A stretch of 64,000 nucleotides of DNA from Candidatus Chloroploca mongolica (lineage in GTDB: Bacteria > Chloroflexota > Chloroflexia > Chloroflexales > Chloroflexaceae): NCBI RefSeq assembly GCF_004762035.2, contig NZ_SIJK02000014.1:1-64000 (forward strand). Reading direction: 5' to 3'. A model generated the notes under the pieces. The model did no database searches, was not told the origin of the DNA, and worked only from the letters and a program-made list of their open reading frames with translations. Each line of letters starts with the position of its first letter. Within the stretch, counting starts at the first letter, position 1. Below are positions 141 to 63,084 of the stretch, piece by piece. A program made the translations under genes and the position numbers.

Positions 141-173
141 GCAACAAACGCCAGCTTCGCTGGCGTTTGTTGC
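141..173. terminator. Perfect hairpin, 15-bp stem, TTC loop
   Basis: Arms 141-155 and 159-173 are exact reverse complements around a 3-nt loop, with a CCAGC/GCTGG tip. It lies 8 bp past the stop codon of the glycosidase gene on the minus strand, so it probably ends that transcript. There is no long T run. It belongs to the hairpin family described in the findings. The remaining bases 1-140 show nothing I can identify. Confidence 0.7.
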
Positions 174-181
174 CCAACTCC

Positions 182-1966
182 CTAACGCCTCACGCAGGGC
201 AAATAGACCATGGGAGTCAGCACGTAGGGTTCGACCTCTAGCGGAACCTCCACTATCGTGGCTGAAACACGCCGAGGACGTTCACGCAGCGGATCATCAA
301 GCCCCAGCAGATACACCACCTGGGCCAGAGCTTCAGTCTGCACGAGACTCGTCGGGGTGGCAACACTAGTCACCGTGACGATATAAGAGCCTGGCAGCGC
401 ATCGGCCACTGTTTTGAGCAATACGCGGAACTGCCCATCGCCACCAACGATGATCGTCTCGCTCAGCAACTCACCGTTGATCTGCAGCCGTATCGTGTGC
501 CCCACCGGGAACGACGTGCCCGTCAGCAGAAAGTAGCTGTCAGGAGCACCGTCAGGATAGTTGAGCGTCAGGGTTACGCCAGGCTCAGGGGTGCTAGTCG
601 GTTGTGCGGTCGGTTGCGCGGTCGGTTGCGCGGTCGGCTGCACGGTCGGCTGTACGGTCGGCTGCACGGTCGGCTGTACGGTCGGCTGCACGGTCGGCTG
701 TACGGTCGGCTGTACGGTCGGCTGTACGGTCGGCGTTGGTGTGCCACCCGGCGAAGGTGGGGTGATACGGATCGTACTGGCACGCGCCGCCGTGAATGTC
801 CCCATCGGAGCAGCAATGTCTTGCCATGAGCCACTGCTATCAACGCCTTCATAGGTCCAACCCATCGCCCCGGCATAGCAGTTGGCGTAGATCGACTCGA
901 GCAATTGCAGTGGCGTCATCCCCGAACCATCGGCATTCGCGGGAAACTCGCCAATCACGACCGGCTTATCAAAGCCACCTTCCTGCCAACCCAACCGCAT
1001 CGGCGAGAAAGTCCAGTTATCATCACCATTAGCCCAGGGGTAATAGTGGATCTGATAATAATCCAGATAGCCCTCAGCATCATAGCGGGTCAGCGCAGCA
1101 TCACTGTACCAGTTGCCCTCGGCCCCGGGAATAGTATCGCTATTCCACTTCATTGCTGCAGCCCCAACCGTAATCAACTGGTTCGAGTTGCGCCGGATCG
1201 CCCCCGTCACTTCGGCAATAAAACGCTGCATCTCAGCAAGCGACACCGGGTTGTCAATATTCCAATGGATCGACCCCGACTCCCGAATGCCCCACTCGGG
1301 CTCATTGATAATCTCCCAGGTGATCACATTGGGATGCGTCCCAATGGTATAGGAGGTGCCAGCGATCGGGTAGCGCAGCATGGGAATGACGGCGTTGTCA
1401 ATGAAGGCCTGGCGTTTGGTCGTATCAACCACCAGGTCACGCTGATTCTGGATAATTCCATTGGGGCGGGCCAACATATCGAATGACCAGAGGGTAAAGA
1501 CAATATAGATGTCATGTTTGGCGGCAAGTTTGATCGCATCAGCCATGCTCGGGAGCGTATCGTCATCAAACCCGGTCGTCATGCCATTGGCAATCTCAGG
1601 GGCACCACGCCCATCCGCAAAGACCCACCAACGCACACTGTTGACCCCCCGTGCTTTCAAGGCAGCAAACATCTGATCAGCACTCTCGGTCGTGTACGTG
1701 TGCTGCCACCATTCCTCCACCGTGCCAAAATCAGCGCCGAAGCCCCCATCAAGCCAGGGCACATTCATTCCCGCCAAAAACCAGTGCCCATCAAGCCAGG
1801 GCACCAGATGGCTCTGATCAGCTGGACACGCAGTAGCAGCACGGGCTGTGCGTGTGACAGGACTCACTCCTGGGCTCAGGCTCACGATCAGAAGCGCAAG
1901 CATCATGCAACATGACAGGCCGAGCATGACGGTACGGGTTGTACCAGAAGGGCTACGGCTCAACAT
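182..1966 (-). CDS. Secreted glycoside hydrolase, GH5-like, with (PTVQ)n linker
   Basis: A 594-residue exported protein. An N-terminal signal peptide (hydrophobic about residues 13-30, AxA-type cleavage near 43) precedes a (beta/alpha)8 glycosidase domain of about residues 50-400. The acid/base glutamate is visible in WEIINEPEW and the probable nucleophile in VIGEFP, which is the clan GH-A arrangement (family knowledge). A threonine/proline linker of eight PTVQ and three PTAQ units follows, then a beta-rich C-terminal domain of about 120 residues that may bind a surface or carbohydrate. The start is fixed by a strong GAGGAGGT ribosome site 5-12 bases upstream. Exact substrate (beta-glucan or mannan) cannot be read from sequence. 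It stands alone, divergent from aceA, and ends at a perfect hairpin. Confidence 0.8.
   Translation of the reverse strand: MLSRSPSGTTRTVMLGLSCCMMLALLIVSLSPGVSPVTRTARAATACPADQSHLVPWLDGHWFLAGMNVPWLDGGFGADFGTVEEWWQHTYTTESADQMFAALKARGVNSVRWWVFADGRGAPEIANGMTTGFDDDTLPSMADAIKLAAKHDIYIVFTLWSFDMLARPNGIIQNQRDLVVDTTKRQAFIDNAVIPMLRYPIAGTSYTIGTHPNVITWEIINEPEWGIRESGSIHWNIDNPVSLAEMQRFIAEVTGAIRRNSNQLITVGAAAMKWNSDTIPGAEGNWYSDAALTRYDAEGYLDYYQIHYYPWANGDDNWTFSPMRLGWQEGGFDKPVVIGEFPANADGSGMTPLQLLESIYANCYAGAMGWTYEGVDSSGSWQDIAAPMGTFTAARASTIRITPPSPGGTPTPTVQPTVQPTVQPTVQPTVQPTVQPTVQPTVQPTAQPTAQPTAQPTSTPEPGVTLTLNYPDGAPDSYFLLTGTSFPVGHTIRLQINGELLSETIIVGGDGQFRVLLKTVADALPGSYIVTVTSVATPTSLVQTEALAQVVYLLGLDDPLRERPRRVSATIVEVPLEVEPYVLTPMVYLPCVRR
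598..733. repeat. 12-bp in-frame tandem repeat encoding PTVQ/PTAQ
   Basis: About eleven 12-bp units (plus-strand form close to CGGTCGGCTGTA) run head to tail inside the glycosidase gene. Because the unit is four codons, copy-number change alters linker length without a frameshift. All frames are open here, which creates several false ORFs. Confidence 0.9.
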
Positions 1967-1996
1967 ATTCTTACCTCCTCGTTTGAAAGATCATAA

Positions 1997-2012
1997 ATGA
2001 CATTTTTGTCAT
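1997..2012. promoter_or_regulatory. Palindrome ATGACA-TTTT-TGTCAT, possible operator
   Basis: A perfect 6-bp inverted repeat with a 4-bp spacer. It falls at the predicted transcription start of the glycosidase promoter (2019-2047, minus strand), which is where a repressor would act. The regulator is unknown. Confidence 0.35.
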
Positions 2013-2018
2013 CGAGAG

Positions 2019-2047
2019 ACAGTAGATCAGGCTTGTTCATCCGTCAA
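2019..2047 (-). promoter_or_regulatory. Possible promoter of the glycosidase gene
   Basis: Reading the minus strand, TTGACG (2042-2047) is followed after 17 bp by TACTGT (2019-2024). The -35 is good and the -10 poor. It would give a leader of about 45 nt ending in the strong ribosome site. Confidence 0.35.
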
Positions 2048-2237
2048 GTATGACAATCCTGTAATATTTGCAGAGTAGCACGCTGCAATTACGAGCGTAT
2101 TACCAGTCGTTCCCCCCCAAGAGCCCTCAACCTGAACATGTTGTGGCGAAAAGCTAAGTTTGTGATCGTAATTTTCCATCTTGTGGAAAGCTAAACCACC
2201 AGGTGGATTTTGTAACCCTGATGTAACTAAAACGGTA

Positions 2238-2243
2238 TATAAT
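2238..2243 (+). promoter_or_regulatory. Consensus -10 box upstream of aceA
   Basis: TATAAT lies 105 bp before the aceA start; no convincing -35 is seen at 16-18 bp spacing. An activator may assist it. Confidence 0.4.
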
Positions 2244-2347
2244 AGGTTTCGGCGGGGTTGTGAATGACCCTCATTGATGGTGACAGGTTGTCGAGTGGAG
2301 TTGGGAAAGTAGTTGCGGACTCATCGTCGAGGAAAGGATCTGAACGT

Positions 2348-3622
2348 ATGAATCGTGAGCAGCAGATCGCTCAAATTGCCGAGGTTTGGAATTCGCCACG
2401 TTTTGCCGGAATTGCACGTGGCTACAGCGCCGAGGAAGTCTATCGTCTACAGGGTTCGGTACAGCCCGAGTCAACCCTGGCCCGCATGGGTGCCGAACGC
2501 CTCTGGAATCTTTTGCATAGCGAGCCCTTTGTCAATACCCTTGGTGCGCTCACCGGCAATCAGGCCGTGCAGCAGGTCAAGGCCGGGCTCAAGGCGATCT
2601 ATCTGTCAGGGTGGCAGGTTGCCGCTGATGCCAACCTCGCCGGCCAGATGTACCCCGACCAGAGCCTCTATCCCGCCAATAGTGTGCCGATGGTCGTCAA
2701 GCGGATCAATCAGGCGCTACAGCGCGCTGACCAGATCCAGCATTCCGAGGGCACCGGCGATACCTACTGGTTCGCGCCGGTTATTGCCGATGGTGAGGCT
2801 GGCTTTGGTGGCCCGCTCAATGTCTTTGAGTTGACCAAGGCGATGATCGAGGCGGGTGCCGCTGGTGTCCACTTCGAAGACCAGCTCGCCTCTGAGAAGA
2901 AGTGTGGGCACATGGGCGGCAAGGTGCTCTTGCCAACCCAGCAGGCCGTCCGTAATCTCGTGGCCGCCCGGCTCGCCGCTGATGTGATGGGTGTGCCAAC
3001 CCTCATTATTGCCCGCACTGATGCCAATGCCGCCAATTTGATCACCAGTGATGTGGATGAGCGCGACCATCCCTTCCTCACCGGCCAGCGCTCCCCTGAA
3101 GGCTTCTATTATGTCAATCCAGGCCTCGACCAGGCAATCTCACGCGGTCTGGCCTATGCTGAATATGCCGATATGGTCTGGTGTGAGACGGCTGAACCGA
3201 GCATCGAGGAGGCGCAGCGCTTTGCCGATGCGATCCATGCGAAGTATCCCGGTAAGCTGCTCGCCTATAACTGCTCACCAAGCTTCAATTGGAAGAAGAA
3301 ATTGAGTGATGCCGATATCGCTCGCTTCCAGCGTGCGATTGGCGAGATGGGCTATAAGTTCCAGTTTGTGACCCTCGCTGGCTTCCATAGCCTCAATTAC
3401 AGCATGTTTACCCTCGCCCACGGCTATAAGGATCGTGGCATGGCTGCGTACTCTGAGTTGCAGCAGGCCGAGTTCGCCGCCGAAGATCAGGGCTATACCG
3501 CCACCCGCCATCAGCGCGAAGTCGGAACCGGCTACTTCGATGAGGTGAGCATGGTGATTTCTGGAGGTACCTCCTCCACCACTGCCCTCGCTGGCTCAAC
3601 CGAGGCCGAGCAGTTCCACTAG
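2348..3622 (+). CDS. aceA: Isocitrate lyase
   Basis: Cleaves isocitrate to glyoxylate and succinate, the first step of the glyoxylate shunt. The protein is 424 residues, a normal bacterial length. The family signature KKCGH is present with the catalytic cysteine at residue 186, and the TIM-barrel motifs (AxGGP-type [18 protein letters not shown]) are intact. An ATG at 2264 would add 28 low-complexity residues; the start at 2348 is preferred because AGGAAAGG lies about 10 bases upstream and the homologous region begins there. It is followed by a 25-bp hairpin and then aceB, so both shunt enzymes are encoded together. This supports growth on acetate or on compounds giving acetyl-CoA. Confidence 0.95.
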
Positions 3623-3655
3623 GCTCGGAAGAAGCCGCACAGCCCTCAAGAAAAG

Positions 3656-3708
3656 ATTTCTGCTGACGCACGATGCAAGCAATGCTTGCATCGTGCGTCA
3701 GCAGAAAT
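3656..3708. terminator. Perfect 25-bp stem hairpin between aceA and aceB
   Basis: Arms 3656-3680 and 3684-3708 pair without mismatch around AAT; the tip is GCAAGC/GCTTGC and a short T run follows. It sits inside what looks like an operon, so it may partly terminate transcription or protect the aceA mRNA end. Confidence 0.75.
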
Positions 3709-3751
3709 TTGAAAACTATTTCCGTATCATGAAAAATGAAAGGACGGATCA

Positions 3752-5350
<1,599 letters not shown>

Positions 5351-5359
5351 GGCATCCCT

Positions 5360-5869
5360 ATGAAGACCGAAAACATGCTTTTGCTGGTCTACAGTTTCAC
5401 AAGCGCCAGTCGGGCCGAAGCAGTTCGCTATGTCATCGAAACCCTCGATCGGCAAATTGGTGAACGCACCGGGCACTTTGCCGTGGTGATGAAGCGTGAG
5501 GATGGCTCGATCAGCCTGCGCGAGCCACGCGATTTCGGTGAGGAACTGGCCGATTTGACCACGTCATTGGTCGGCGGTCTCGCTTGGTTTGCCTATACGT
5601 TCGTTGGCCTGATGGGCACCCAGCCTGCTGCGTTTGTGGAACGCGTGACCAGTGAGGCAACCCGCCGGATGGTGCGCGAGACGGGCTTTCCCGAGCAGTC
5701 GCTTTATGAGATCGGGGCGGAACTTGATACCGGCTCAGCCGCGATTGTTGGTCTGATCCCGGCTGAAGAACGCGATGTCCTTGTCGCTGAACTCGAACGA
5801 CTCGGCGGCAAGCTCTGGGAACATCCAATCCCACCCACTATTGCCGCTGAATTACACAGCGCTACGTAG
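5360..5869 (+). CDS. DUF1269-like membrane-associated protein
   Basis: A 169-residue protein. The layout is DUF1269-like: an N-terminal alpha/beta stretch with an acidic turn (MKREDGSISL), a central Gly/Ala/Phe-rich hydrophobic segment (about 70-95, LVGGLAWFAYTFVGLMG), and a C-terminal alpha/beta stretch ending EERDVLVAELERLGG. Function is unknown for the family. It starts 9 bp after aceB, so it is probably part of the glyoxylate operon, and a GC-rich hairpin follows. The family call rests on pattern memory, not a search. Confidence 0.6.
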   Translation: MKTENMLLLVYSFTSASRAEAVRYVIETLDRQIGERTGHFAVVMKREDGSISLREPRDFGEELADLTTSLVGGLAWFAYTFVGLMGTQPAAFVERVTSEATRRMVRETGFPEQSLYEIGAELDTGSAAIVGLIPAEERDVLVAELERLGGKLWEHPIPPTIAAELHSAT

Positions 5870-5881
5870 CCATGAATCACC

Positions 5882-16067: not shown

Positions 16068-16118
16068 TGCTTCATTGACAAAAAAGCCAGCTACGCTGGC
16101 TTTTTTGTCAATGAAGCA
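16068..16118. terminator. Perfect 24-bp stem hairpin, TAC loop
   Basis: Arms 16068-16091 and 16095-16118; the stem includes A6/T6 and a GCCAGC/GCTGGC tip. It lies between the convergent ends of ilvA and prs and, because of the A and T runs, looks like a true bidirectional terminator. Confidence 0.85.
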
Positions 16119-20259: not shown

Positions 20260-20787
20260 GGAGAATATAACCTGCGTGAAACAAGATCCTATGGCGATTA
20301 TACTCTTCTCATCGCATCTCTGCAATTGAGCTTTGTTCACCCACAGCGTAGCCGCAAGCGGCACGTTCTTGTACATATGCACCCCACCAGGGCACCCGCA
20401 AGGGGTGCCCCTACACCGGATGCGGCCTGGCCCCGGTAGGGGCACCCCTTGCGGGTGCCCGCCCGTACACCGGATGCGGCCTGGCCCCGGTACGGGCACC
20501 CCTTGCGGGTGCCCGCCCGTACACCGGATTCTGGCCCCGGTACGGGCACCCCTTGCGGGTGCCCGCCCGTACACCGGATTCTGGCCCCGGTACGGGCACC
20601 CCTTGCGGGTGCCCGCCCGTACACCGGATTCGGCCCCGCCCCGGTACGGGCACCCCTTGCGGGCACCCCGTTGTATCCGATTTCGTATGATGCAATCGCC
20701 CTGGGCATAAGCCCTCACCGTGAAGCACAGACGCAGAAAAGTGGTAAGATAACCCCAATTTCTCTGCCTAATGGATGGGAGACCGTA
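20260..20787. other. Non-coding divergent region containing the repeat array
   Basis: 528 bp between the UPF0104 gene and fabI. It holds the tandem array (20380-20673). The flanking 120 bp on the left and 115 bp on the right show no gene; no promoter for fabI meets a clear consensus. Open frames across it come from the repeats. Confidence 0.7.
20380..20673. repeat. GC-rich tandem array, units of 50-54 bp, with an inverted end unit
   Basis: TACACCGGAT starts recur at 20412, 20466, 20520, 20570 and 20620, giving periods of 54, 54, 50 and 50 bp. Each unit holds the palindrome CGGGCACCC-CTTGC-GGGTGCCCG. The first palindrome (20390-20411) has the loop GCAAG, so it is in opposite orientation. The last unit is degenerate. 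There are no unique spacers, so this is not CRISPR. Confidence 0.85.
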
Positions 20788-21573: not shown

Positions 21574-21618
21574 GTCCTGACGAAAACGACCATTTCTCCT
21601 GGTCGTTTTCGTCAGGAC
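21574..21618. terminator. Perfect 19-bp stem hairpin, 7-nt loop
   Basis: Arms 21574-21592 and 21600-21618 around TTTCTCC. It starts 3 bp past the fabI stop and lies between convergent fabI and moxR. Its right arm overlaps the beginning of the 48-bp duplication. Confidence 0.8.
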
Positions 21619-25233: not shown

Positions 25234-26544
25234 ATGTTGCCAACACCACGCCTACTCACGCTGCTGTTGCTTGCCGCTCTGCCGATTGCGCTGAGCGCAT
25301 TTGCGCCAGGGTTGCTCTGGATTGCGATGCTCTACCTGGGGGTCGTTGGGGTCGTCGCGATCAGCGATCTGGTGCTCATGGCGCGGCCACAGCAGATCGA
25401 AGTAGAACGCCTGCACGATCCACAACTCTCACTAGGGGCCGAAAACCTGATCACCCTGTTGCTCGCCAATGCTACACCGCGACCAATTGTCTTTACCTTA
25501 CGGGATGAAAGTCCGCACGAGTTTCCTGCGGATACACCGTTTCTCAGGGGAACAATCCCGCCCTACGATATCCACGAGGCACGCTACCATGTGCGGCCCC
25601 TGCGGCGTGGTGACTACCAGTTTGGGGCGGCAGTGATGCGGATCACCGGGCCAATGGGAATGCTCGTGCGCCAGATCCGCTATCCGCTCGCAGCAACGGT
25701 GCGCGTCTACCCGAACGTGCTCGAACTCAAAAAATATGACTTGCTGGCCCGCAAAGGGCTGTTGCACGAACTCGGTTTACGGGTCTCGCGGGTACGCGGG
25801 CACGGGGGCGAATTCGAGCGGCTACGTGATTACACGACCGACGACGAATTTCGGCGGATCAACTGGAAAGCCAGCGCACGGCGGGGCAAACTGATCGCTG
25901 CCGAGTATGAAATCGAACGCAGTCAACACGTTGTCTGCGTCATTGACTGTGGACGGCTCATGGCCCCGCCTGTCGGCGAACTGATGCGCCTCGACTATGC
26001 TGTCAACACCGCGCTGATGTTGAGTTATGTCGCAGGCCTCCGCGGGGATCAAGTCGGCCTACTTGCCTTTGCCGACCAGGTACGCAAGTACGTGGCCCCG
26101 CGACGGGGCAAACCCCACTTTCAGCAGATCCTCGAAGCGCTCTACAACCTCCAGCCTGAACCAGTCGAGGCCGATCACGGGGTTGCCTTGAACTACCTGG
26201 CACGGCGGCAGCGGCGCCGTGCCCTGATTGTGGTCTTTACCGATCTTGCCACCCCCGAAGCGACCGGGCCACTGGTGACGCACCTGACCCGCCTGGCGCG
26301 CCACCACCTGCCCCTCTGTGTCACCGTCAGTGACCCCTTCATCACCGGGGCAGCCGGACGCCCGGCGAACGACAGCAGCGCCCTCTACGAACGCGCCGTC
26401 GCCGAGGGCTTGCTCGACGAACGGCGCGCTCTGCTTGATCGCCTCCAGCGCAGTGGCGTGCTGACCGTTGATGTCCCTGCTGATCGTCTCAGCGCCGGGG
26501 TGATCAACACCTACCTGCGCCTAAAAGCCCAGGGACGCCTCTAA
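25234..26544 (+). CDS. DUF58 domain protein
   Basis: A 436-residue membrane-anchored protein. Two hydrophobic helices at the N-terminus (about 5-45) precede a soluble region with the DUF58 hallmark DYTTDDEFRRINWKASAR near residue 205 and a VWA-like fold after it (VVCVIDCGRLM; LIVVFTDLATPEA). DUF58 proteins commonly sit beside MoxR ATPases. Here the gene faces away from the VIT/VWA-moxR pair, 100 bp apart, so a shared control region is likely. The start is set by the -10 box 7 bases before it. Biochemical role unknown. Confidence 0.85.
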   Translation: MLPTPRLLTLLLLAALPIALSAFAPGLLWIAMLYLGVVGVVAISDLVLMARPQQIEVERLHDPQLSLGAENLITLLLANATPRPIVFTLRDESPHEFPADTPFLRGTIPPYDIHEARYHVRPLRRGDYQFGAAVMRITGPMGMLVRQIRYPLAATVRVYPNVLELKKYDLLARKGLLHELGLRVSRVRGHGGEFERLRDYTTDDEFRRINWKASARRGKLIAAEYEIERSQHVVCVIDCGRLMAPPVGELMRLDYAVNTALMLSYVAGLRGDQVGLLAFADQVRKYVAPRRGKPHFQQILEALYNLQPEPVEADHGVALNYLARRQRRRALIVVFTDLATPEATGPLVTHLTRLARHHLPLCVTVSDPFITGAAGRPANDSSALYERAVAEGLLDERRALLDRLQRSGVLTVDVPADRLSAGVINTYLRLKAQGRL

Positions 26545-26555
26545 GACGGGATATT

Positions 26556-26630
26556 TGACGCAAAAGCGCAGAGGCGCAAAGGTTTGATGGATCTGTATGC
26601 GCAGCTTTGCGCCTCTGCGCCTTTGCGTCA
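26556..26630. terminator. 26-bp inverted repeat with 23-nt loop (CGCAAAGGCGC-rich)
   Basis: Arms 26556-26581 and 26605-26630 match at 25 of 26 positions, the exception being a G.T pair. Each arm is made of CGCAAAG/GCGCAGAG-type submotifs. It lies between convergent DUF58 and mscL stops (mscL ends at 26634). Confidence 0.75.
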
Positions 26631-26633
26631 GCC

Positions 26634-27023
26634 CTACCGTTTGAGCGCCTCGAGTTGCTGCTTCTGCAGATCACGAATCTCGGTCAAGAGCACAACGTCA
26701 GCCGGGGTTGGGGCCGGCGGAGGCGGGGCAGCGGCAACCCGTGCGGCAAGGGCCGAGAACGGACGCACAATAAAGAAATAGATGACAGCAGCTTTGAGAA
26801 TAAAGGTAATAACTGCTGAAAGAAAGACACCAACTGGAAAAACCCCAAACTGGATCAACGCAAGATCATCCCCTGCACTGCCGAGGATGATCGCCAGTAG
26901 GGGATCAACAAACGCAACAATGAACCCATCCACCACACTGTTAAATGCCGCTCCGATCACCACTGCAACCGCCAGATCAATGACATTGCCCCGCAACAAA
27001 AAATTCCGAAACCCCTGCCACAT
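26634..27023 (-). CDS. mscL: Large-conductance mechanosensitive channel
   Basis: Opens under membrane tension to release solutes during osmotic downshock. The 129 residues contain the amphipathic N-terminal helix (WQGFRNFLLRGNVIDLAVAVVIG), TM1 with the gate region GAAFNSVVDGFI, a short periplasmic loop, TM2 (SAVITFILKAAVIYFFIV) and a C-terminal helix LLTEIRDLQKQQLEAL after a Pro-rich linker. It forms a pentamer in this family. It is transcribed alone and ends at a long inverted repeat. Confidence 0.95.
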   Translation of the reverse strand: MWQGFRNFLLRGNVIDLAVAVVIGAAFNSVVDGFIVAFVDPLLAIILGSAGDDLALIQFGVFPVGVFLSAVITFILKAAVIYFFIVRPFSALAARVAAAPPPPAPTPADVVLLTEIRDLQKQQLEALKR

Positions 27024-28598: not shown

Positions 28599-28660
28599 TT
28601 GATGATCACCGTGAAGCGGCCCCTGGCGTATGCCAGGGGCCGCTTCACGGTGATCATCAA
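28599..28660. terminator. Perfect 29-bp stem hairpin, GTAT loop
   Basis: Arms 28599-28627 and 28632-28660. It lies between convergent stops at 28588 and 28664 and fills nearly the whole gap, so it should act on both strands. Confidence 0.85.
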
Positions 28661-29749: not shown

Positions 29750-29765
29750 ACAACCTCCGTTGATA

Positions 29766-29824
29766 GCGTGCTGATGGTGCGCAAACGACCAGCATTGCTG
29801 GTCGTTTGCGCACCATCAGCACGC
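29766..29824 (-). terminator. Perfect 28-bp stem hairpin, ATT loop
   Basis: Arms 29766-29793 and 29797-29824 with tip GACCAGC/GCTGGTC. It follows the BMP gene stop (29844) by 19 bp and ends 16 bp before the M24 start, so it would also shape the leader of any readthrough mRNA. Confidence 0.8.
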
Positions 29825-29843
29825 TTGTTTGTCATCGATAGCG

Positions 29844-37569: not shown

Positions 37570-37629
37570 CAAGTCTGGCCCATCCTGCTATAATGCAGGG
37601 TGGGCCTCCGGCCCCCAAGGATTGCTTGT

Positions 37630-37674
37630 ACGTTGGTGCTATTGGCCAGTTTCGCTGGCCAATAGCACCAACGT
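37630..37674 (+). terminator. Perfect 20-bp stem hairpin
   Basis: Arms 37630-37649 and 37655-37674 with tip GGCCAG/CTGGCC. It begins about 60 bp after the FtsX-like permease stop. Confidence 0.8.
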
Positions 37675-37733
37675 GACAACCCGGTTGAAGGGCTGCCGCC
37701 CTAAAAAGGCCGGTCTTAGTTGGAGCAGAACGT

Positions 37734-42272: not shown

Positions 42273-42319
42273 GTTCAGATCACAGAAGGACAGCAGGGCT
42301 GTCCTTCTGTGATCTGAAC
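42273..42319. terminator. Perfect 22-bp stem hairpin, AGG loop
   Basis: Arms 42273-42294 and 42298-42319, tip GGACAGC/GCTGTCC. It lies between convergent genes (stops at 42263 and 42344). An extra TCTGTGATCTG copy follows at 42321. Confidence 0.85.
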
Positions 42320-52279: not shown

Positions 52280-52338
52280 CTTGTATGTGCTGACGAAAAC
52301 GGCCAGCGAAGCTGGTCGTTTTCGTCAGCACATACAAG
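52280..52338 (-). terminator. 28-bp stem hairpin with one G.T pair, GAA loop
   Basis: Arms 52280-52307 and 52311-52338, tip CCAGC/GCTGG. It begins 12 bp after the dtd stop and separates it from the phosphatase-kinase unit. Confidence 0.8.
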
Positions 52339-55289: not shown

Positions 55290-55295
55290 AGGTCG

Positions 55296-55301: not shown

Positions 55302-55356
55302 CCACGCACTATCGTGTGTTGAATTGAGTTCAAAGTTTGTTTGAAACGACTTGAGA

Positions 55357-55397
55357 TGCGACAAAACCCGCCAGCAACGCTAGCAGGTTTTGTCGCA
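55357..55397 (-). terminator. 19-bp stem hairpin with two mismatches, AAC loop
   Basis: Arms 55357-55375 and 55379-55397; tip CCAGC/GCTAG. It follows the clpC stop (55423) and precedes the radA promoter. Confidence 0.7.
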
Positions 55398-55422
55398 CCC
55401 CAGGTCGTTTGCCGAGGTACAG

Positions 55423-57954
55423 CTACTCAACCAAGGCCGGGCTCTCTTCGGGATGGGCTTCAGTGGCACCATTTTCCCCATCGATCTGGCGCTGCGAGCG
55501 AAGGCGCAACTCCTCGTCGTGGACATCGGCAATAATCGTATCACCTTCGGTGAAGCGTGCATCAAGCACACCCTCGGCAAGGGGATCTTCGATCAGGTTC
55601 GTAATAATGCGGCGGAGTGGTCGTGCGCCAAACGCGGGATCATAGCCACGGCGGGCGAGCAAATCGAGCGCATCCTCACGTACCTCAAGCACCATCTGGT
55701 GCTCATCAAGCTGGTTCTGCACCCGGCGAAGCATCAACGTCGTAATCTGATGGATCTCTTCGGTGGTCAACGGATGGAAGATGATCGTCGCATCAATCCG
55801 GTTCAGGAACTCGGGGCGGAAGAGCACCTTGAGCGCATCATCAACCTTGCGCCGCATATCCATCTGGTCAATCTCATCGGCATTGCCACCGAAACCAATC
55901 CGGCTTGCGCGGCGGATATGCTCGGTGCCAACATTCGAGGTCATGATGATGATCGTATTGCGGAAGTCAACCTTGCGGCCCTTGCCATCAGTCAGATTGC
56001 CATCTTCGAGCACCTGGAGGAGCAGGTTAAAGGCATCGGGATGGGCCTTCTCGATCTCATCAAAGAGCACCACGCTATAGGGTTTGCGACGCACCGCATC
56101 GGTCAACTGACCACCCTCGCCATACCCGACATAGCCTGGAGGCGAGCCGACCAGACGCGAGGTCGTATGGCGTTCCTGGAACTCGGACATATCAATCTTG
56201 ATGAGACTCTCTTCCGAGCCAAACATAAACTCGGCGAGCGTCTTGGCAAGTTCGGTCTTGCCCACCCCAGTCGGCCCGAGGAAAATAAAGCTCCCGATGG
56301 GACGCTTGGGATCTTTGAGGCCAGCGCGGGCACGGCGCACCGCCTTGGAGATCGTCACGATCGCCTCTTGCTGCCCAACAACCCGATTATGGAGGAAATC
56401 CTCCATCTGCATCAAACGCATCGTCTCATCGCCCTTGAGGCGCGTCACGGGAATGCCCGTCCACATCCCAACAACTTCAGCAATATCTTCATCGGTGACA
56501 TAGGGGCGTTCCGCGACCCGCTCATCGCCGCCAGCGGCACCGATATCAGCCTCAATCTGGACAATGCGGTTCTGCATACGCTCTTCGCGCTCGCGGAGAT
56601 CGGCGGCCAGATCAAACTGCTTATCTTCGAGGGCGGCCTCTTTCTCCTTGCGGAGCGCCTCAAGGCCACGGAGGGCATCACGAAGCTGAGGAGGCGTCGC
56701 CGAGCGATACATGCGCACCCGACTGGCAGCCTCATCGATCAAATCGATCGCCTTATCGGGCAACTGGCGGTCGGGCACATAGCGGGCCGAGAGCGCAGCA
56801 GCGGCCTTAATCGCCTCATCGCTAATCTGGAGTTGATGGAAATCCTCATAGCGGGACTTGATCCCACGGAGAATCTGCACCGTATCTTCGAGAGACGGCT
56901 CATCAACCATCACGGGCTGAAAGCGGCGTTCGAGGGCCGCATCACGCTCGATATACTTACGGTACTCATCGAGCGTCGTTGCCCCAATGGTCTGGAGCTC
57001 GCCACGGGAAAGAGCGGGCTTGAGAATATTGGCGGCATCGAGTGTACCCTCAGCCCCACCGGCACCAATAATCGTATGAAATTCATCAATAAAGAGAATG
57101 CAGCGGGTCTCTTTAATCTCATCAATCACCCGTTTGAGGCGTTCTTCAAACTGACCACGATATTTCGTCCCAGCGACAAGTGCCCCCATGTCGAGGGTCA
57201 CCACGCGTTTGCCCTTGATGCTATCGGGAACATCGCCTTGAATAATGCGCTGAGCGAGACCCTCAACAATTGCCGTTTTGCCAACACCGGGTTCACCAAT
57301 CAACGCCGGATTATTCTTGGTACGGCGCGAAAGGATTTGGATCACGCGCTCAATCTCGTGCTGACGGCCAATAATCGGATCAAGGCGCCCAGCCTCGGCC
57401 ATCTCGGTCAAATCGGTACCAAGGGCATCGAGGTACGGCGTCTTGGACTGGCGCTGGGCACCCGACTGACTCCCGCCGGCTCCGCGCTGCTCAGGAGCGG
57501 TACCAGTGGTTCCGTGCCGCAGGACGCGCATCACCTGATTGCGCACCTGTTCAAGGCTCACGCCCATAATATCGAGCACACCAGTAGCCACACCTTCGCC
57601 ATTGCGCACGAGGCCAAGGAGCAAATGTTCGGTGCCAATATAGTGATGATAGAGGCGGCCTGCCTCTTCAATGGCATACTTAATCACTTTCTGGGCGCGG
57701 GCGGTCAACTCCTGATCGGTAACGGGCGTACCCTCACCTGTCCCAACAATAAACTCAACCGCGCTACGGGCCTGGGCGAGTTTGACCCCCAGATCATCAA
57801 GAACGCGTGCGGCAATGCCCTCACTCTCGCGAATCAAACCGAGGAGGATATGCTCGGTCCCGATATACGGGTGGTTAAACGAGCGGGCCTCTTCGTGCGC
57901 AAGCTGGAGAACCTGCTTGGCGCGCTTGGTAAACTTACTATAGAGGTCAGACAT
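55423..57954 (-). CDS. clpC: Clp protease ATP-binding subunit ClpC
   Basis: A HSP100 unfoldase of 843 residues that feeds substrates to ClpP. Two N-terminal Clp repeats (about 3-145), AAA-1 with [13 protein letters not shown], a UVR/coiled-coil middle region (about 420-475), AAA-2 with [12 protein letters not shown], and a C-terminal D2-small domain are all present. The ATG at 57954 is set by GGAGA upstream; a GTG at 57966 adds four residues. No ctsR, mcsA or mcsB is adjacent. A plus-strand frame of 859 codons runs against it but is a shadow. Confidence 0.96.
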
Positions 57955-58000
57955 GGTATTCTCCACTAGCTATCGCTGGCAAGTCACGAGCTTGCCTTGC

Positions 58001-59209
58001 TCACTCGCCTTGCTCACCGCTCTCATCAACGTCTTCACCAGACTCACGGTTCACACGCAGGCTCAAGCCCATTCGCTTGCGGGTTGGATCGATGCGAATA
58101 ATGCGTGCCTGCACCACAGCCCCTTCCGCAAGAAACTCGCGAGGATGTTGCATCGGCTCATCGCCCATTTCTGAAATATGGATCAAACCCTCGACCCCAT
58201 CTTCAATGCGGGCAAACGCGCCAAATGACGTAAGCTGTGTAATAACCCCTTCAACCACCTGACCCAGTTGATAACGTTCACCGACACGGGACCAGGGTTC
58301 ATGCTGTGTCCGTTTAATCGACAGCGCAATACGTTTACGCTCGTGATCAATGCTTAAGATCATCACCAGCAAGTGATCACCAACATTGAGCACCTCACCG
58401 GGATGTTTCACCCGGCTCCACGAAATTTCGGACATATGGACAAGGCCATCAGCACCACCGATATCAACAAATGCCCCGAAATCACAGACCGAGCTAATCG
58501 TCCCCTCACGCACATCACCTTCGCGCAACGATGCAAGCAATTCATCTTTCTTGCTCTCGCGCGATTCTTGCATAGCCTGGCGCTCGGAGAGGATCAGGCG
58601 ATTGCGATTACGGTTCAGTTCAATCACTTTCAGCCTCAGGTCAGTATTGACCATCCGCGCCATATCAGACTGCTTCTGGGTATCGGGGCCACGACTAATG
58701 CCCGAAACCTGCGAAGCCGGAACAAAACCACGGACGCCCTCTAAATTGACGAGCAACCCACCCTTATTGTAATTCACAACCCGGGCCGAGATGACCTCGC
58801 CCTTCTCATAGGCAGCCTGAAGCAAGCGCCAGCTTCGCTCTTGACGCGCCTTATCAATCGAGAGGATTGCCCGCCCCTCTTTATCTTCAGACTGGACAAC
58901 AAAGACCAGCAAAGGATCGCCGACCTGCAAAGCAGCGCGATCTTCTGCCGCCAACGATTGCATCTCGCGTGACGGAACGATTCCTTCAGCCTTTGAACCG
59001 ATATCAACGAGGATTTCATCACGTTCGACACGCATGATCAGACCATCCACCGTATCGCCATATTTGAGGTTACGGTAGTCGTGAGCCGGATCATTGAGGA
59101 ACTGCTCCATCAGAGCAAGATCCTCAGCCTCGAAGTCGTTGCCATTCTCAACGTGTGCGGGTGTGGGTTGTGCCTCAGACTCGGCAGCGTTCCCCTTCAA
59201 TTCTTCCAT
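58001..59209 (-). CDS. rpsA: 30S ribosomal protein S1
   Basis: A 402-residue protein with an acidic N-terminus and four S1 (OB-fold) RNA-binding domains (about 45-115, 130-205, 222-292 and 308-380), for example DFGAFVDIGGADGLVHMSEISW and SFGAFARIEDGVEGLIHISEM. The four-domain form is typical of Gram-positive-type S1. AAGGA lies upstream. It is 46 bp upstream of clpC and may be cotranscribed. S1 helps recruit structured or leadered mRNAs, which is of interest given the leaderless genes here. Confidence 0.92.
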   Translation of the reverse strand: MEELKGNAAESEAQPTPAHVENGNDFEAEDLALMEQFLNDPAHDYRNLKYGDTVDGLIMRVERDEILVDIGSKAEGIVPSREMQSLAAEDRAALQVGDPLLVFVVQSEDKEGRAILSIDKARQERSWRLLQAAYEKGEVISARVVNYNKGGLLVNLEGVRGFVPASQVSGISRGPDTQKQSDMARMVNTDLRLKVIELNRNRNRLILSERQAMQESRESKKDELLASLREGDVREGTISSVCDFGAFVDIGGADGLVHMSEISWSRVKHPGEVLNVGDHLLVMILSIDHERKRIALSIKRTQHEPWSRVGERYQLGQVVEGVITQLTSFGAFARIEDGVEGLIHISEMGDEPMQHPREFLAEGAVVQARIIRIDPTRKRMGLSLRVNRESGEDVDESGEQGE

Positions 59210-59315
59210 GCGCCGTCCTTGAGTACACAGTGAAAGACTCTACCGAAGATGGGACAGGAAGCAGAAACAGTCGTTTGAATTATACGCCCGTACTGCACAA
59301 AGCGCAAGGGTATGC

Positions 59316-59344
59316 TTGCTGATCACGTACGGGCTTGTTATACT
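59316..59344 (+). promoter_or_regulatory. Promoter of ppk
   Basis: TTGCTG (59316-59321), 17 bp, TATACT (59339-59344). It would give a leader of about 38 nt. This is the best-spaced promoter in the window. Confidence 0.6.
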
Positions 59345-59388
59345 ACAAGAGCAATGTGTACCCCCACCTAATCCAGCCAGAGGCTGAT

Positions 59389-61497
59389 ATGACAACGCAG
59401 GATGTGCCATCCGAAGAGACCGTTGAGCTATTCACGAACCCTAATTCGCGCTATTTCAACCGCGAGTTGAGCTGGATCGAGTTCAACCGCCGTGTGATCG
59501 AAGAGGCGTTCGATGTTCGGAACCCCCTGCTTGAACGGATAAAATTCCTGTCGATCTGGGCCTCGAATCTTGACGAATTTTTTATGATCCGCGTGAGTGG
59601 CATCAAGCAGCAAATCAGTGCGGGTGTCCAGAAATTATCACGCGATGGGGCAACGCCGACCGAACAACTCCATCATATTCGCCAGGCCTTGCTACCCCTT
59701 CTCGTTCAAGAGCGTGATCTGTTGCTCAATGATTTGCTGCCGAGTCTCCGTGAACAGCATATCCATTTATATAATTATGACAACTTAAATCGTCAGCAAA
59801 AAGACTGGTTGCGCACGTATTATCAGCAACAGATTTTTCCAGTCCTGACCCCTCTAGCCTTTGATAGCAGCCGCCCCTTCCCTTTTATCTCTAACCTGAG
59901 TCTCAATCTCGCGGTGGTCATACGTGATCGTGACAAGGGCGAACTCTTTGCCCGTGTGAAGGTGCCCGAGGTACTGCCACGCCTTATCGCTTTGCCGCAA
60001 GAGCTCTGCGAAGTGGTACACGACCAGCCGGCAGGCCGTCAGGCATGTTTTGTCTGGATCGAGCAGGCGATTGCCGCCCATCTTGATCTGCTCTTTCCCG
60101 GGGTCGAGATTGTAGAGCATTACCCGTTTCGCGTGGTACGCAATGCCGATATGGAGATCGAAGAGGACGAAGCCAACGATCTGCTCGAAACCATCGAGCA
60201 GGGGGTGCGCCAGCGGCGGTTTGGCGAGGTGGTACGCCTGACCATTGACTCGTCGATGCCTGAACGCATTGCGACGATCTTGTCGACCAATCTGAAGATC
60301 GAGTCCAATGATATTTATACCGTGCGCGGCCCCCTCGGGCTCGCCGATCTCTTCAATCTCTATCGCCTCGATCGACCAGATCTCAAGGATCCGCCCTATG
60401 TGCCGGTTGTGCCCCTTGTTTTGCAAAACAATTCCGATATCTTTGAGACGATTCGTGGCGGCGATATTCTGCTCCATCATCCCTACCACTCGTTTTCACC
60501 CGTGATTGATTTCATTCACGCCGCCGCCGAAGATCCCCATGTGCTCGCGATCAAGCAGACTCTGTATCGCGTCGGGAGTAACTCACCGATTGTGCGTGCG
60601 TTGATGCACGCTCGCGAGCTGGGCAAGCAGGTGACGGCGGTGGTCGAACTCAAGGCACGTTTTGATGAAGAGAATAATATTGTCTGGGCTAGAGCTCTTG
60701 AGCGTGCCGGCGTCCATGTGGTCTATGGTCTGGTCGGCTTGAAAGTTCATGCCAAGCTCGCGCTGGTGGTGCGGCAAGAAGCCGACCGGTTGCGTTGTTA
60801 TGCGCATCTTGGTACCGGTAATTACAATGCGACCACAGCGCGCATCTATACCGACCTGGGGCTCTTTACATGCCGCGAGGATATTACCGCTGATGTTGTC
60901 GAGCTCTTCAATTCGCTGACCGCCTATGGGCGGCGTGACCAGTATCGCAAGCTGCTGGTTGCCCCGGTCACCATGCGCCATCGCCTGCTAGCGATGATTG
61001 AACGTGAAATGCAACGCCAGGCGACGACGGGCAACGGGCGGATCATTATTAAAGTCAATGCGCTGGTTGATCGCCAGATGATCGATGCGCTCTACCGTGC
61101 CTCGAAGGCTGGTGTCCAGATTGATCTCATTGTCCGCGGTATGTGTGCCCTCCGCCCTGGACTGCCCGGTGTGAGCGAGAACATCCGCGTGCGCAGCATT
61201 ATCGGCCCGTTTCTTGAGCATCACCGGATCTACTATTTCGGCAATGGCGGTGAACCCGAGATCTACCTGGGCAGTGCTGATCTGATGGAGCGCAACCTTG
61301 ATCGACGGGTCGAGGAACTCTTTCCCGTGGAAGATCCGGCGCTCGCCCGCTATGTTCGCAAGACGATGCTCGACACCTATCTCAATGATAATACCCGCGC
61401 CCACGTGCTCCACGCCAATGGAACCTATGAACGGCGCACTCCTGGTGAGGATGAACCAGTTGATAGTCAGGTGCCAGCATGGATGCTTGGTGAGTAG
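59389..61497 (+). CDS. ppk1: Polyphosphate kinase 1
   Basis: Makes inorganic polyphosphate from ATP. The 702 residues have the N domain (YFNRELSWIEFNRRVIEEA), head domain, and the two phospholipase D-like C domains. The autophosphorylated His is H454 in LKVHAKLALVVR; further active-site histidines are H611/H612 in EHHRIYYF. The ATG at 59389 has the PPK1 N-terminus a few residues on; the TTG at 59335 overlaps the promoter. The HEXXH peptidase gene begins 21 bp past the stop. Confidence 0.95.
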   Translation: MTTQDVPSEETVELFTNPNSRYFNRELSWIEFNRRVIEEAFDVRNPLLERIKFLSIWASNLDEFFMIRVSGIKQQISAGVQKLSRDGATPTEQLHHIRQALLPLLVQERDLLLNDLLPSLREQHIHLYNYDNLNRQQKDWLRTYYQQQIFPVLTPLAFDSSRPFPFISNLSLNLAVVIRDRDKGELFARVKVPEVLPRLIALPQELCEVVHDQPAGRQACFVWIEQAIAAHLDLLFPGVEIVEHYPFRVVRNADMEIEEDEANDLLETIEQGVRQRRFGEVVRLTIDSSMPERIATILSTNLKIESNDIYTVRGPLGLADLFNLYRLDRPDLKDPPYVPVVPLVLQNNSDIFETIRGGDILLHHPYHSFSPVIDFIHAAAEDPHVLAIKQTLYRVGSNSPIVRALMHARELGKQVTAVVELKARFDEENNIVWARALERAGVHVVYGLVGLKVHAKLALVVRQEADRLRCYAHLGTGNYNATTARIYTDLGLFTCREDITADVVELFNSLTAYGRRDQYRKLLVAPVTMRHRLLAMIEREMQRQATTGNGRIIIKVNALVDRQMIDALYRASKAGVQIDLIVRGMCALRPGLPGVSENIRVRSIIGPFLEHHRIYYFGNGGEPEIYLGSADLMERNLDRRVEELFPVEDPALARYVRKTMLDTYLNDNTRAHVLHANGTYERRTPGEDEPVDSQVPAWMLGE

Positions 61498-61518
61498 CAT
61501 ATCGGTGAAAGGATAGGA

Positions 61519-63042
61519 ATGAGTCTCAAGGTACGATCCGGAGGAGGTGTCCACACTTCTCCTGGGAGTGAAGGCGTCCCGCCCTCGCACGGAACCCGAG
61601 GGCGGGACGCCCTCGCTCCCAGCCCCAGGTGGGGACAGCTACGAGTCGGATTGCTCAGCCTCGTGGTGCTTCTGGCAATGCTGCTGATGGCAACCCCAAC
61701 GCAAGCGCAGGAGAGCCTTGACTGGCGCGAGCTACAAACCGACTATTTTCGGATTCTGTACCGCGCTAACGGGGAAGAGGAAGCACGCCGTTATGAGGCA
61801 TGGGTCGATGTGATCTATGACGATCTGGCTGCGGCCTTCAATTATCGTACCACTCCCCCCCTCACATTGCGGCTCTATCCGGGGAGTGCCGACTACTTTG
61901 CGGTCAACCCGAGCGCACGCAATGTGCCAGGCGTGATCGCCCACGCCGACTTTCGCCTCCGCGAACTGGTCGTGATTGTCGAACGGACTGCGGCGCAGAG
62001 TGAAGAGGGGGTCAAGAATAATGTGCGCCATGAACTCACGCATATTATTGCCGCCGATCTCAGCAATAATCAGCTCAATACCGGGTTCCACGAGGGCATT
62101 GCCCAATATATGGAACGACCTGCTGATGAGCTGGAACAGCGCATCCGAGCGCTCCGTCAGGCCTATGAACGCGGCCTGTTGATGCCCTGGAGTGCATTTG
62201 ACGACCGCGAGCGCATCTATGGGCAACCTGAAATTGGCTACCCACAGAGTCTCTCGGTGGTGGCGTTTCTCATTGAGCAGTACGGCTTCACGCGCATGCG
62301 TGAGTTTCTGATTCTGAGTGGACGTACACCGAGCTTTCGCGAGGCGCTGGTGCAAACCTATCAGCGTTCGGCAGCTGAACTGGAACTGGCCTGGCGCGAC
62401 TGGTTACCCGAGTATCTCGAGGGGGGCTACCAGCGCAACGCACTGGTGGCGTATGATCTGAGTTTTGTGCGCAGTCTGGTCAACCAGGGCAGTTACGCCG
62501 CCGCCGAGCAGGAGTTGCGGACAACGGTCGAGTGGCTCAAGAATCATGCCGACACCCAACCAGCCACGGTGGTGGCCGAAGCCGAGGCCTTGCTTGCACG
62601 TAGTGCGCAAGGCATGCGGGCCGAACAACTGGCCGAGAGTGCGCGGCAAGCGCTGCAACAGGGGGACTACGAGCGTGCCATCCGGCTCGTTGCTGATGCC
62701 CAACACCTCTACGCCGAGTTGAATGACGCACGACAGGCCGAAGTACTGGCGATCTACGCTGCACGGGCTACGCGTGGCATGCAGGCCACCAGTGTCCTGG
62801 CTCAGGCGGTTGAGTTGACGCGCGGCTTCAACTATCCACAGGCGCATCTGCAAGCCGACCGGGCCGCCGCCGAATTTGCGGCCCTCGGTGATACGCTACG
62901 GCGGAGTAACGCCGAACGGCTCCGTGATAGCCTGGCAACGCAACAGCGCCTGGTTGGGTTCGGCTTGCTGATCCTCGGAAGCTTCGGGGTGGTGCTGAGT
63001 CTGCTTGGCTGGGCTTTTCGGCGACCTGCCGAGATCTGGTAA
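61519..63042 (+). CDS. Secreted HEXXH metallopeptidase (MA-like) with helical repeats
   Basis: A 507-residue exported protein. The hydrophobic signal helix is at about 43-60 and ends in TPTQAQ. The gluzincin motif HELTH is at 171-175, with the downstream Glu in GFHEGIAQYMER. The C-terminal 200 residues are helical, TPR-like (SYAAAEQELRTTVEWL; DYERAIRLVADAQHLYAEL), ending in a transmembrane helix (LVGFGLLILGSFGVVLSLLGW). The ribosome site AAAGGATAGGA fixes the ATG at 61519, yet residues 10-35 come from a palindromic repeat (see 61562-61622). Cotranscribed with ppk1. Confidence 0.82.
   Translation: MSLKVRSGGGVHTSPGSEGVPPSHGTRGRDALAPSPRWGQLRVGLLSLVVLLAMLLMATPTQAQESLDWRELQTDYFRILYRANGEEEARRYEAWVDVIYDDLAAAFNYRTTPPLTLRLYPGSADYFAVNPSARNVPGVIAHADFRLRELVVIVERTAAQSEEGVKNNVRHELTHIIAADLSNNQLNTGFHEGIAQYMERPADELEQRIRALRQAYERGLLMPWSAFDDRERIYGQPEIGYPQSLSVVAFLIEQYGFTRMREFLILSGRTPSFREALVQTYQRSAAELELAWRDWLPEYLEGGYQRNALVAYDLSFVRSLVNQGSYAAAEQELRTTVEWLKNHADTQPATVVAEAEALLARSAQGMRAEQLAESARQALQQGDYERAIRLVADAQHLYAELNDARQAEVLAIYAARATRGMQATSVLAQAVELTRGFNYPQAHLQADRAAAEFAALGDTLRRSNAERLRDSLATQQRLVGFGLLILGSFGVVLSLLGWAFRRPAEIW
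61562..61622. repeat. Palindromic repeat inside the peptidase N-terminus
   Basis: Arms 61562-61587 and 61597-61622 match at 24 of 26 positions around a 9-nt loop. It encodes the low-complexity stretch SEGVPPSHGTRGRDALAPS ahead of the signal helix and looks like an inserted intergenic repeat. Confidence 0.75.
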
Positions 63043-63049
63043 TCATGTT

Positions 63050-63084
63050 CCCCTCTTCGCCCAGCTATGCTGGGCGAAGAGGGG
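63050..63084. terminator. Perfect 16-bp stem hairpin, TAT loop
   Basis: Arms 63050-63065 and 63069-63084, tip CCCAGC/GCTGGG. It lies between convergent genes (stops at 63042 and 63102). Confidence 0.8.

What the first reader, a model, noticed from the sequence alone, without database searches (positions are those of the whole stretch)
141..63084. A family of very long, mostly perfect intergenic hairpins with a shared CCAGC-nnn-GCTGG tip
At least ten gene ends carry inverted repeats with 15-29 bp arms. They are at 141-173, 3656-3708, 16068-16118, 21574-21618, 28599-28660, 29766-29824, 37630-37674, 42273-42319, 52280-52338, 55357-55397 and 63050-63084. Eight have exactly 3-nt loops. The base of the stem differs in each, but the tip is often CCAGC/GCTGG (variants CCAGT, ACAGC, GCAAGC). 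Ordinary terminators rarely have such long perfect stems and usually have a T run; most here lack one. Either this lineage terminates with extended stems, or the tip is a protein or RNase site, or each arises by a palindrome-extending process.
Basis: partly seen in the sequence, partly recalled or inferred. Interest (0 to 1): 0.7.

Follow-up and report, generated by a model that had tools for sequence, protein, structure and literature searches.

The report
Self-mirroring transcription terminators in Chloroploca
Many genes of this filamentous photosynthetic bacterium end in unusually long, almost perfect DNA hairpins that look like two-way transcription stop signals, and between sister species both arms of a hairpin change together and its loop often flips, as if one arm were repeatedly copied from the other during DNA replication.

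Summary
The hairpins are real. Nine of the 11 listed have perfect arms of 15-29 bp; five random sequences of the same dinucleotide make-up gave none above 10. The genus is Candidatus Chloroploca (Chloroflexales). CCAGC-nnn-GCTGG occurs 258 times in the genome, against 25 for the reversed motif. In a 464 kb sample, hairpins with a CCAG-type tip lie at gene ends and carry a T run inside the 3' arm, paired with an A run (AAA in 22, TTT in 2 of 33 left arms); hairpins with other tips show no such polarity. I read the CCAG class as bidirectional intrinsic-type terminators with extended stems; RNA ends were not testable. A subset are copies of a dispersed composite repeat. Between three species the arms diverge about as fast as four-fold sites, yet double complementary changes far exceed independent expectation (33, 20, 42 against 2.8, 2.3, 3.3), and differing loop triplets are exact reverse complements in 8/23, 10/23 and 7/16 cases, which no permutation of 20,000 reached. 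Copying of one arm from the other by replication template switching explains this best. The mechanism is known; my literature searches found no report of it at such density in bacterial terminators.

The parts
141..173 (.). hairpin, arms 15, loop ttc, tip CCAGC; T tract inside 3' arm; just downstream of the - strand ORF 182-1966
3656..3708 (.). hairpin, arms 25, loop aat, tip CAAGC, between tandem + ORFs; same core in G001 (arm 24) and, with 4 mismatches, in G002
16068..16118 (.). hairpin, arms 24, loop tac, AAAAAAGCCAGC/GCTGGCTTTTTT, convergent genes; stem symmetrically rewritten in G001 and G002
21574..21618 (.). hairpin, arms 19, loop 7; central loop triplet is the reverse complement of the one in G001; no homologous hairpin identified in G002, where the gap holds other repeats
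28599..28660 (.). hairpin, arms 29, loop gtat, convergent genes; double changes against both congeners; tip CCTGGC, not CCAGC
29765..29825 (.). hairpin, arms 29, loop att, tip CCAGC, tandem - ORFs; double changes in G002
37630..37674 (.). hairpin, arms 20, loop tttcg (CCAGT..GCTGG), tandem + ORFs
37602..37614 (.). left accessory hairpin module GGGCC-tcc-GGCCC of the composite element
   Evidence: sequence; composite consensus
37689..37702 (.). right accessory hairpin module AGGGC-tgcc-GCCCT of the composite element
   Evidence: sequence; composite consensus
42273..42319 (.). hairpin, arms 22, loop agg, tip ACAGC, convergent genes; one double change in G001; no homologous hairpin found in G002
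52280..52338 (.). near-perfect hairpin (96% over 28 nt), loop gaa, tip CCAGC; matches the 25-nt family consensus with 3 mismatches; different sequence in Khr17
55344..55410 (.). imperfect long hairpin (84% over 32 nt), loop aac, AAAA/TTTT in the stem; one compensatory C-G to A-T change against Khr17, read from the alignment
63050..63084 (.). hairpin, arms 16, loop tat, tip CCAGC, convergent genes; central loop triplet reads ata in both congeners, one double change in Khr17

Best explanation
The CCAG-tip hairpins are gene-end terminators of a bidirectional intrinsic type. A short G+C-rich tip followed by a T tract (preceded by an A tract) is embedded in a longer palindrome, so that either strand gives nearly the same very stable RNA hairpin. 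Some are copies of a dispersed composite repeat (GGGGCC hairpin - main palindrome - TTTTTAGGGCGACAGCCCTAAAAA hairpin); others have stems that no longer resemble it or never did. In both, pairing is kept while sequence drifts, most likely because during replication the nascent strand folds back, or switches strand, at the palindrome and copies one arm from the other. This turns one-sided mutations into two-sided ones, sometimes rewrites several pairs, and flips the loop. Shown: position, tract polarity, stem covariation at near-neutral speed, loop flips, dispersed copies. Inferred: termination, the replication step, and how copies spread.
For: Position: perfect hairpins (arm >=12) in 34/58 convergent, 23/112 tandem, 12/61 divergent intergenic regions; stem base a median 19 nt from the stop codon; 30 of 33 CCAG-type hairpins lie in convergent or tandem gaps. 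Tract polarity: AAA 22 vs TTT 2 of 33 CCAG-type left arms; A 0.56, T 0.06 at positions 7-12 from the loop. Folding energies of the 11 window hairpins -26 to -63 kcal/mol. Covariation, third-species-ascertained: doubles 33, 20, 42 vs 2.8, 2.3, 3.3 expected; one-sided 39, 48, 33 vs 98, 94, 109; per-site arm divergence 12.6-15.5%, near four-fold sites 15-18% and above aligned noncoding 6-8% (own genome against each congener). Doubles are 33 transition- to 62 transversion-type although four-fold changes are 7270:5527, against a G-U route. Loop flips 8/23, 10/23, 7/16; permutation means 1.04, 1.61, 0.87, none of 20,000 reaching the observed; flips with unchanged arms at loci 1 and 28. Polarised doubles cluster by locus and species (sum of squares 150 vs mean 80.6, 0/5000).
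Against: No RNA 3' ends. Hairpins with other tips (46 of 79) show no tract polarity (A 0.19, T 0.21) and 12 of them lie in divergent gaps, so termination is not supported for that class. One-sided changes are not rare (39, 48, 33) and 5, 10 and 6 further columns changed on both sides without pairing. Directional extension (one flank kept, the other overwritten) is clear by eye in only a few cases; in several both flanks match, i.e. an older long stem was broken by a mutation. Of 234 ortholog comparisons 39 were scored as no hairpin (7 of them unscanned gaps of 500 nt or more) and 33 as a different one (15 of these only because loop parity differs); all 72 were left out of the pair counts, which also require similar tips and choose the best-pairing centre. 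Exonuclease VII, which I recall as a suppressor of such events in E. coli, is present in all 10 genomes searched.
Confidence: 0.6

Rival explanations
1. Selection alone: ordinary point mutations, each one-sided mismatch being compensated later because the terminator (or an RNase III-type stem) needs a perfect helix.
For: Pairing is kept at gene ends and the A/T polarity of the CCAG class shows function; one-sided states exist, so intermediates are tolerated for a time.
Against: Arms diverge about as fast as four-fold sites, whereas I would expect two-step compensation to be slower; doubles are mostly transversion-type, which cannot pass through G-U; exact loop flips are not predicted; stems of 25-33 bp are in my judgement longer than termination needs.
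Confidence: 0.2
2. Mobile palindromic repeat: the hairpins are copies of a REP/MITE-like element that inserts at gene ends; two-sided differences come from replacement by other copies (ectopic conversion).
For: Dispersed composite copies in three species; presence/absence at orthologous sites, e.g. the composite at own C44:43584 is absent in G001.
Against: Only 7 of 18 long CCAG-type arms in the sample resemble the consensus at p<=0.05; the rewritten stem of locus 75 in G002 is unique in that genome at <=3 mismatches (one locus tested); loop flips exceed a permutation that already uses the pool of loops. Y1 transposase matches are few (3, 5, 3 in the three Chloroploca) and none was found in G032, which has the densest long stems of the samples compared. 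Direction of gain or loss is unresolved.
Confidence: 0.25
3. The tip CCAGC-nnn-GCTGG is a binding or cleavage site of a protein (nucleoid protein, RNase, topoisomerase) and the stem serves to present it.
For: Tip enriched tenfold over a reversed palindrome and also on long stems in another genus, G032 (3 of the 6 tip sites seen there).
Against: The tip goes together with the A/T-tract polarity, which termination explains; 48 of 74 perfect hairpins with arms >=14 lack the strict CCAG tip, so long stems do not depend on it; many copies share descent.
Confidence: 0.06
4. Artefact: chance palindromes or assembly errors at hairpins.
For: Draft assemblies in about 160-200 contigs.
Against: No random sequence comes near; orthologous hairpins occur in three separate assemblies.
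Confidence: 0.02

Closest known systems
Bidirectional intrinsic (Rho-independent) terminators with A tract and U tract
   Same: Gene-end position, convergent-gene preference, G+C-rich tip, T tract after the tip and A tract before it. PMC12207403 (passages read) names A tracts as a feature of bidirectional terminators and mentions A-tract/U-tract pairing.
   Different: Stems run well past the A/T tracts. The same paper gives median terminator stem lengths of 20-35 nt (both arms together), against up to 58 nt in the window and 66 nt in G002, and usually no T run follows the whole stem.
Template-switch-created and -maintained hairpins (Monttinen and Loytynoja 2022, PMC8794818)
   Same: Two-sided changes, multi-base changes and loop inversions are the signatures described there (outline, abstract and passages read).
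   Different: There, in rRNA, loop inversion with a compensatory change was very rare (6 cases) and loop-only inversions numbered 69; here 7-10 of 16-23 differing loop triplets per species pair are exact flips, at bacterial gene ends.
REP/BIME elements with RAYT transposases
   Same: Dispersed extragenic palindromes in composite arrays; PMC3733652 (passages) reports GTAG repeats in Chloroflexi too.
   Different: No GTAG or CGTC directly beside the main stem in the consensus; stems far longer than most GTAG families' 6-9 bp (longest 12-13); no Y1 transposase match in G032.
Perfect inverted repeats across genomes (PMC13155455)
   Same: Enriched at terminators, variable spacers.
   Different: That survey reports conserved arms, most so near terminators (passages read); here arms change fast but in register.
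Nematomorph mitochondrial perfect inverted repeats (PMC6649704)
   Same: Many long perfect palindromes in one genome (abstract and outline read).
   Different: Those are inside genes, up to 284 bp; these are at gene ends.

Membership tests
Intrinsic terminator | G+C-rich hairpin shortly downstream of stop codons | tested here: met
   median 19 nt from stop; hairpin list; 30 of 33 CCAG-type in convergent or tandem gaps
Intrinsic terminator | T tract directly after the hairpin | tested here: inconclusive
   after the whole stem rare (5 of 79); after the tip, inside the 3' arm, 22 of 33 CCAG-type but only 11 of 46 others have AAA in the left arm
Intrinsic terminator | RNA 3' ends at the site | not testable with these tools
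   no transcriptome was available to me
Bidirectional terminator | A tract upstream, preference for convergent genes | tested here: met
   for the CCAG class; not for other tips
Template-switch-maintained palindrome | two-sided changes in excess of independent expectation | tested here: met
Template-switch-maintained palindrome | loop (spacer) inversion | tested here: met
Template-switch-maintained palindrome | one flank copied over the other at stem extensions | tested here: inconclusive
   single examples only
Template-switch-maintained palindrome | event seen in replicating cells | not testable with these tools
   needs a reporter or mutation accumulation
REP/BIME (RAYT-mobilised) | GTAG or CGTC foot beside the stem | tested here: not met
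   composite consensus
REP/BIME (RAYT-mobilised) | Y1 tyrosine transposase in the genome | tested here: inconclusive
   3, 5 and 3 PF01797 matches in the Chloroploca genomes, none in G005, G020, G032; whether any is a RAYT was not examined
Rfam RNA family | match at the gathering score | tested here: not met
   only a tRNA in the window

The most novel reading that the evidence does not exclude
Chloroploca terminators form a natural, genome-wide hot spot of hairpin-templated DNA copying. Stem sequence turns over at about the neutral rate while pairing is restored by the mutation process itself, so mutation rather than selection supplies most compensatory changes, and loop flips record the events. 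Such loci would give a direct in-nature assay of template switching, and 'covariation proves selected RNA structure' would fail there.
Probability: 0.4. Interest if true: 0.8.

Novelty: new variant of a known kind. Interest (0 to 1): 0.6.

Why it matters
Covariation is the standard proof that an RNA stem is under selection. Here it may be produced largely by the mutation process, at tens of comparable loci, with loop orientation as a built-in marker. That makes an old question, how perfect long stems arise and persist, testable in a bacterial genus with three sequenced species at hand. It also warns that terminator predictors that require a T run after the stem or a stem-loop of at most 59 nt (the TransTermHP criteria quoted in PMC12207403) would miss some gene ends in this lineage.

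Tried and rejected
Chance: rejected. Tip as a signal across the order: counts are high in several relatives, but at the sites seen in G005 (16) and G037 (rows repeat the same sites) the arms are 5-12 bp and most belong to other repeats, so tip count alone is not the trait; in G032 3 of 6 tip sites have 20-23 bp arms. RAYT/REP: foot not met, transposase uneven. Loss of exonuclease VII as cause: rejected, present in 10 of 10. Ectopic conversion: tested at one locus only, no donor. Stem-extension directionality: weak. E. coli as control: the 5375 records matched by megablast were all at 95-100% identity, which I judged too close, so not used. Small Firmicutes control (pairs at 86% identity or more, gap-free only): 9 hairpins, 0 double, 7 one-sided changes, 0 of 5 differing loops flipped; some hairpins recur between pairs, so it is weak. 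The pair counts, and the polarised counts built on the same hairpins, are limited to the paired extent of the hairpins and so lean to pairing; one search is the one to rely on. Its loci can enter up to three times (56 comparisons). In one search loops of 5-9 nt were reduced to their central triplet and 4-nt loops left out. ORF calls are my own simple ones. On re-checking for this report I found that tract polarity belongs to the CCAG-tip class alone and that some 'none' and 'other' rows are unscanned or parity cases; the text was changed accordingly, the odds were not.
Full report
What was checked. The 11 listed inverted repeats are present. Nine are perfect with arms of 15-29 bp, one is 96% paired over 28 nt and one 84% over 32 nt. 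Eight have 3-nt loops. Five random sequences from a first-order model of the window gave no hairpin arm above 10. The exact tip CCAGC-nnn-GCTGG is in five of the 11.

Organism. The closest named record is Candidatus Chloroploca sp. Khr17 (96% protein identity over one gene), which is the held genome G002, listed as of the same genus (L016 lies in G061, whose places and scores equal those of G002; the contig length agrees). G001 is a second congener. Orthologous stretches are about 93-95% identical.

Genome-wide. CCAGC-nnn-GCTGG occurs 258 times in the own genome against 25 for the reversed motif, and 234 and 226 times in the congeners. In a sample of 464 kb (7% of the genome: the window plus 400 kb taken as stretches) there are 91 perfect hairpins with arms >=12, 79 of them intergenic by my own ORF calls. 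They occupy 34 of 58 convergent, 23 of 112 tandem and 12 of 61 divergent intergenic regions of 25 nt or more; the stem base lies a median 19 nt from a stop codon and, in tandem pairs, 86 nt from the next start.

Tract polarity, and two classes. Over all 79, AAA occurs in 33 and TTT in 7 left arms, AAAA in 18 and TTTT in 2. Split by tip, the polarity belongs to the 33 hairpins with a CCAG-type tip: AAA in 22, TTT in 2, A 0.56 and T 0.06 at positions 7-12 from the loop; 30 of the 33 lie in convergent or tandem gaps. The 46 with other tips show none (AAA 11, TTT 5; A 0.19, T 0.21), and 12 of them lie in divergent gaps; some are other dispersed repeats. The 11 window hairpins fold at -26 to -63 kcal/mol.

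Not all stems are unrelated. A 25-nt consensus typed from the arms has 18 + 14 matches with <=3 mismatches in the own genome and none reversed; the commoner form has 38+37, 27+25 and 22+26 in the three Chloroploca genomes, 1 in G032 and none in G005, G020 or G037. Thirty copies from the three genomes align into a composite: a GGGGCC-tgc-GGCCCC hairpin, the main palindrome, and a TTTTTAGGGC-gaca-GCCCTAAAAA hairpin (some of the 30 are orthologs of each other and a few are truncated). The site at 37602-37702 has the two accessory modules. However only 7 of 18 long CCAG-type arms in the sample resemble the consensus at p<=0.05, so the set is a mixture of family copies and unique or far-diverged stems.

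Three-species comparison. 51 of 91 own loci have both flanks in both congeners. Among perfect hairpins (arm >=14) found in any of the three species, 234 ortholog comparisons gave 162 homologous hairpins, 33 scored as different (15 only because loop parity differs) and 39 as none (7 of them gaps too long to be scanned). With the hairpin ascertained in the third species, the other two show 33, 20 and 42 two-sided Watson-Crick changes where independent change at the same per-site rate predicts 2.8, 2.3 and 3.3; 39, 48 and 33 one-sided changes where 98, 94 and 109 are predicted; and 5, 10 and 6 two-sided changes that do not pair (18, 18 and 20 comparisons). Arm divergence is 12.6-15.5% per site, close to four-fold sites (15-18%) and above aligned noncoding sequence (6-8%, own genome against each congener). 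Two-sided changes are 33 transition-type and 62 transversion-type, against 7270:5527 at four-fold sites. The 16068 hairpin is the best window example: three species, three different perfect 24-bp stems with the same loop; the Khr17 version has no other match in that genome at <=3 mismatches.

Loop flips. Among central loop triplets that differ, 8 of 23, 10 of 23 and 7 of 16 are exact reverse complements; permutation of the same triplets gives means of 1.04, 1.61 and 0.87 and never reaches the observed value in 20,000 trials. At loci 1 and 28 the loop is inverted while 13 and 12 compared pairs are unchanged. In the window, 63050 shows tat against ata.

Clustering. In 27 loci comparable in all three species, 50 two-sided changes can be assigned to one species, against 26 one-sided or other and 11 ambiguous columns; they cluster by locus and species more than in any of 5000 random scatterings. 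These columns lie within the paired extent of the hairpins, so the ratio leans to pairing.

Interpretation. Placement and tract polarity point to bidirectional intrinsic termination for the CCAG class. The evolution of the stems is best explained by copying of one arm from the other at replication, the quasipalindrome template switch known from E. coli (PMC7202029, abstract and passages) and proposed for rRNA stems (PMC8794818, outline and passages). Loop inversion implies that at least part of the events turn the sequence in place, as that paper argues for the inter-strand route. Selection must act too, since pairing is kept at gene ends. How the composite copies spread is open: the REP foot is absent from the consensus and Y1 transposases are uneven.

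Relatives. Perfect hairpins with arms >=14 per 100 kb: own 15.7, G032 19, G005 8, G003 2.6, G020 1.7, twelve Bacilli loci 0.8 (samples of 77-464 kb). G032, another genus of the family, has long stems with the same tip (3 of 6 tip sites seen) and other outer sequence; in G005 and G037 the tip sites seen belong mostly to other repeats. So long stems are a trait of some of the genera sampled, with stems of their own.

Literature. The listings of searches of the open-access library show template switching at inverted repeats in yeast (PMC8604942, abstract in the listing) and rRNA, perfect palindromes in mitochondria, and a survey in which terminator arms are conserved (PMC13155455, passages), but no report that I recognised of loop-flipping, rewritten terminators in a bacterium. 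Searches listed no paper on Chloroploca terminators or repeats; a draft-genome paper (PMC6180586) was listed and not opened. Subscription papers are mostly not held.

Limits. No RNA data; 7% of the own genome sampled; three species; pair counts exclude loci whose hairpins are missing or of different tip and choose the best-pairing centre; the control outside the genus is very small.

Noticed in passing
window 61542-61640: A palindromic insert (GGCGTCCCGCCCTCG arms inside a longer CTGGGAG..CTCCCAG frame) absent from Khr17 and, by the flank match, from G001; relatives of it occur elsewhere in the genus, and G001 carries a different palindrome (GAGTGCCGACTTCAGTCGGC) close by in the same gene gap.
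   Followed up: partly
window 20390-20615: Array of inverted GGGCACCCGCAAGGGGTGCCC units; the stretch around it hits many dispersed copies in both congeners.
   Followed up: no
own sample, e.g. C22:39988, C55:73236, C55:85717, C22:3066, C22:26197: Further perfect palindromes, several recurring: GGAGTGCCGGCTTTAG, GTAGTGCCGACTTCAGTCGGC, AGACCTC..GAGGTCT, TTTTTGGTTCGTTTTGGCGGC (the last with its T tract on the opposite side from the terminators).
   Followed up: no
L208, L211, L214, L217, L225-L229 (G005) and the G037 loci: CCAGC-nnn-GCTGG in these genera sits mostly in other short-armed repeats; in G005 the loop is GAA/TTC at 14 of the 16 sites seen, i.e. it contains the GCGAAGC mini-hairpin that I recall as exceptionally stable in DNA.
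   Followed up: partly
L230-L234 (G032:C1:1-100000): Another genus of the family has even denser long perfect stems, with recurring outer stems such as CTGATGGTGCTGCGGCGCGGC and GTAGGGCCGAAGCA.
   Followed up: partly
own C44:43584-43648 and its ortholog in G001: The whole composite element is absent in G001; the filled site in G002 has short GTAG-like direct repeats at its ends, so insertion or deletion cannot be told.
   Followed up: no
window 26541-26645: Imperfect (80%) 41-nt inverted repeat with a 23-nt spacer, CTAAGACGGGATATTTGACG....
   Followed up: no
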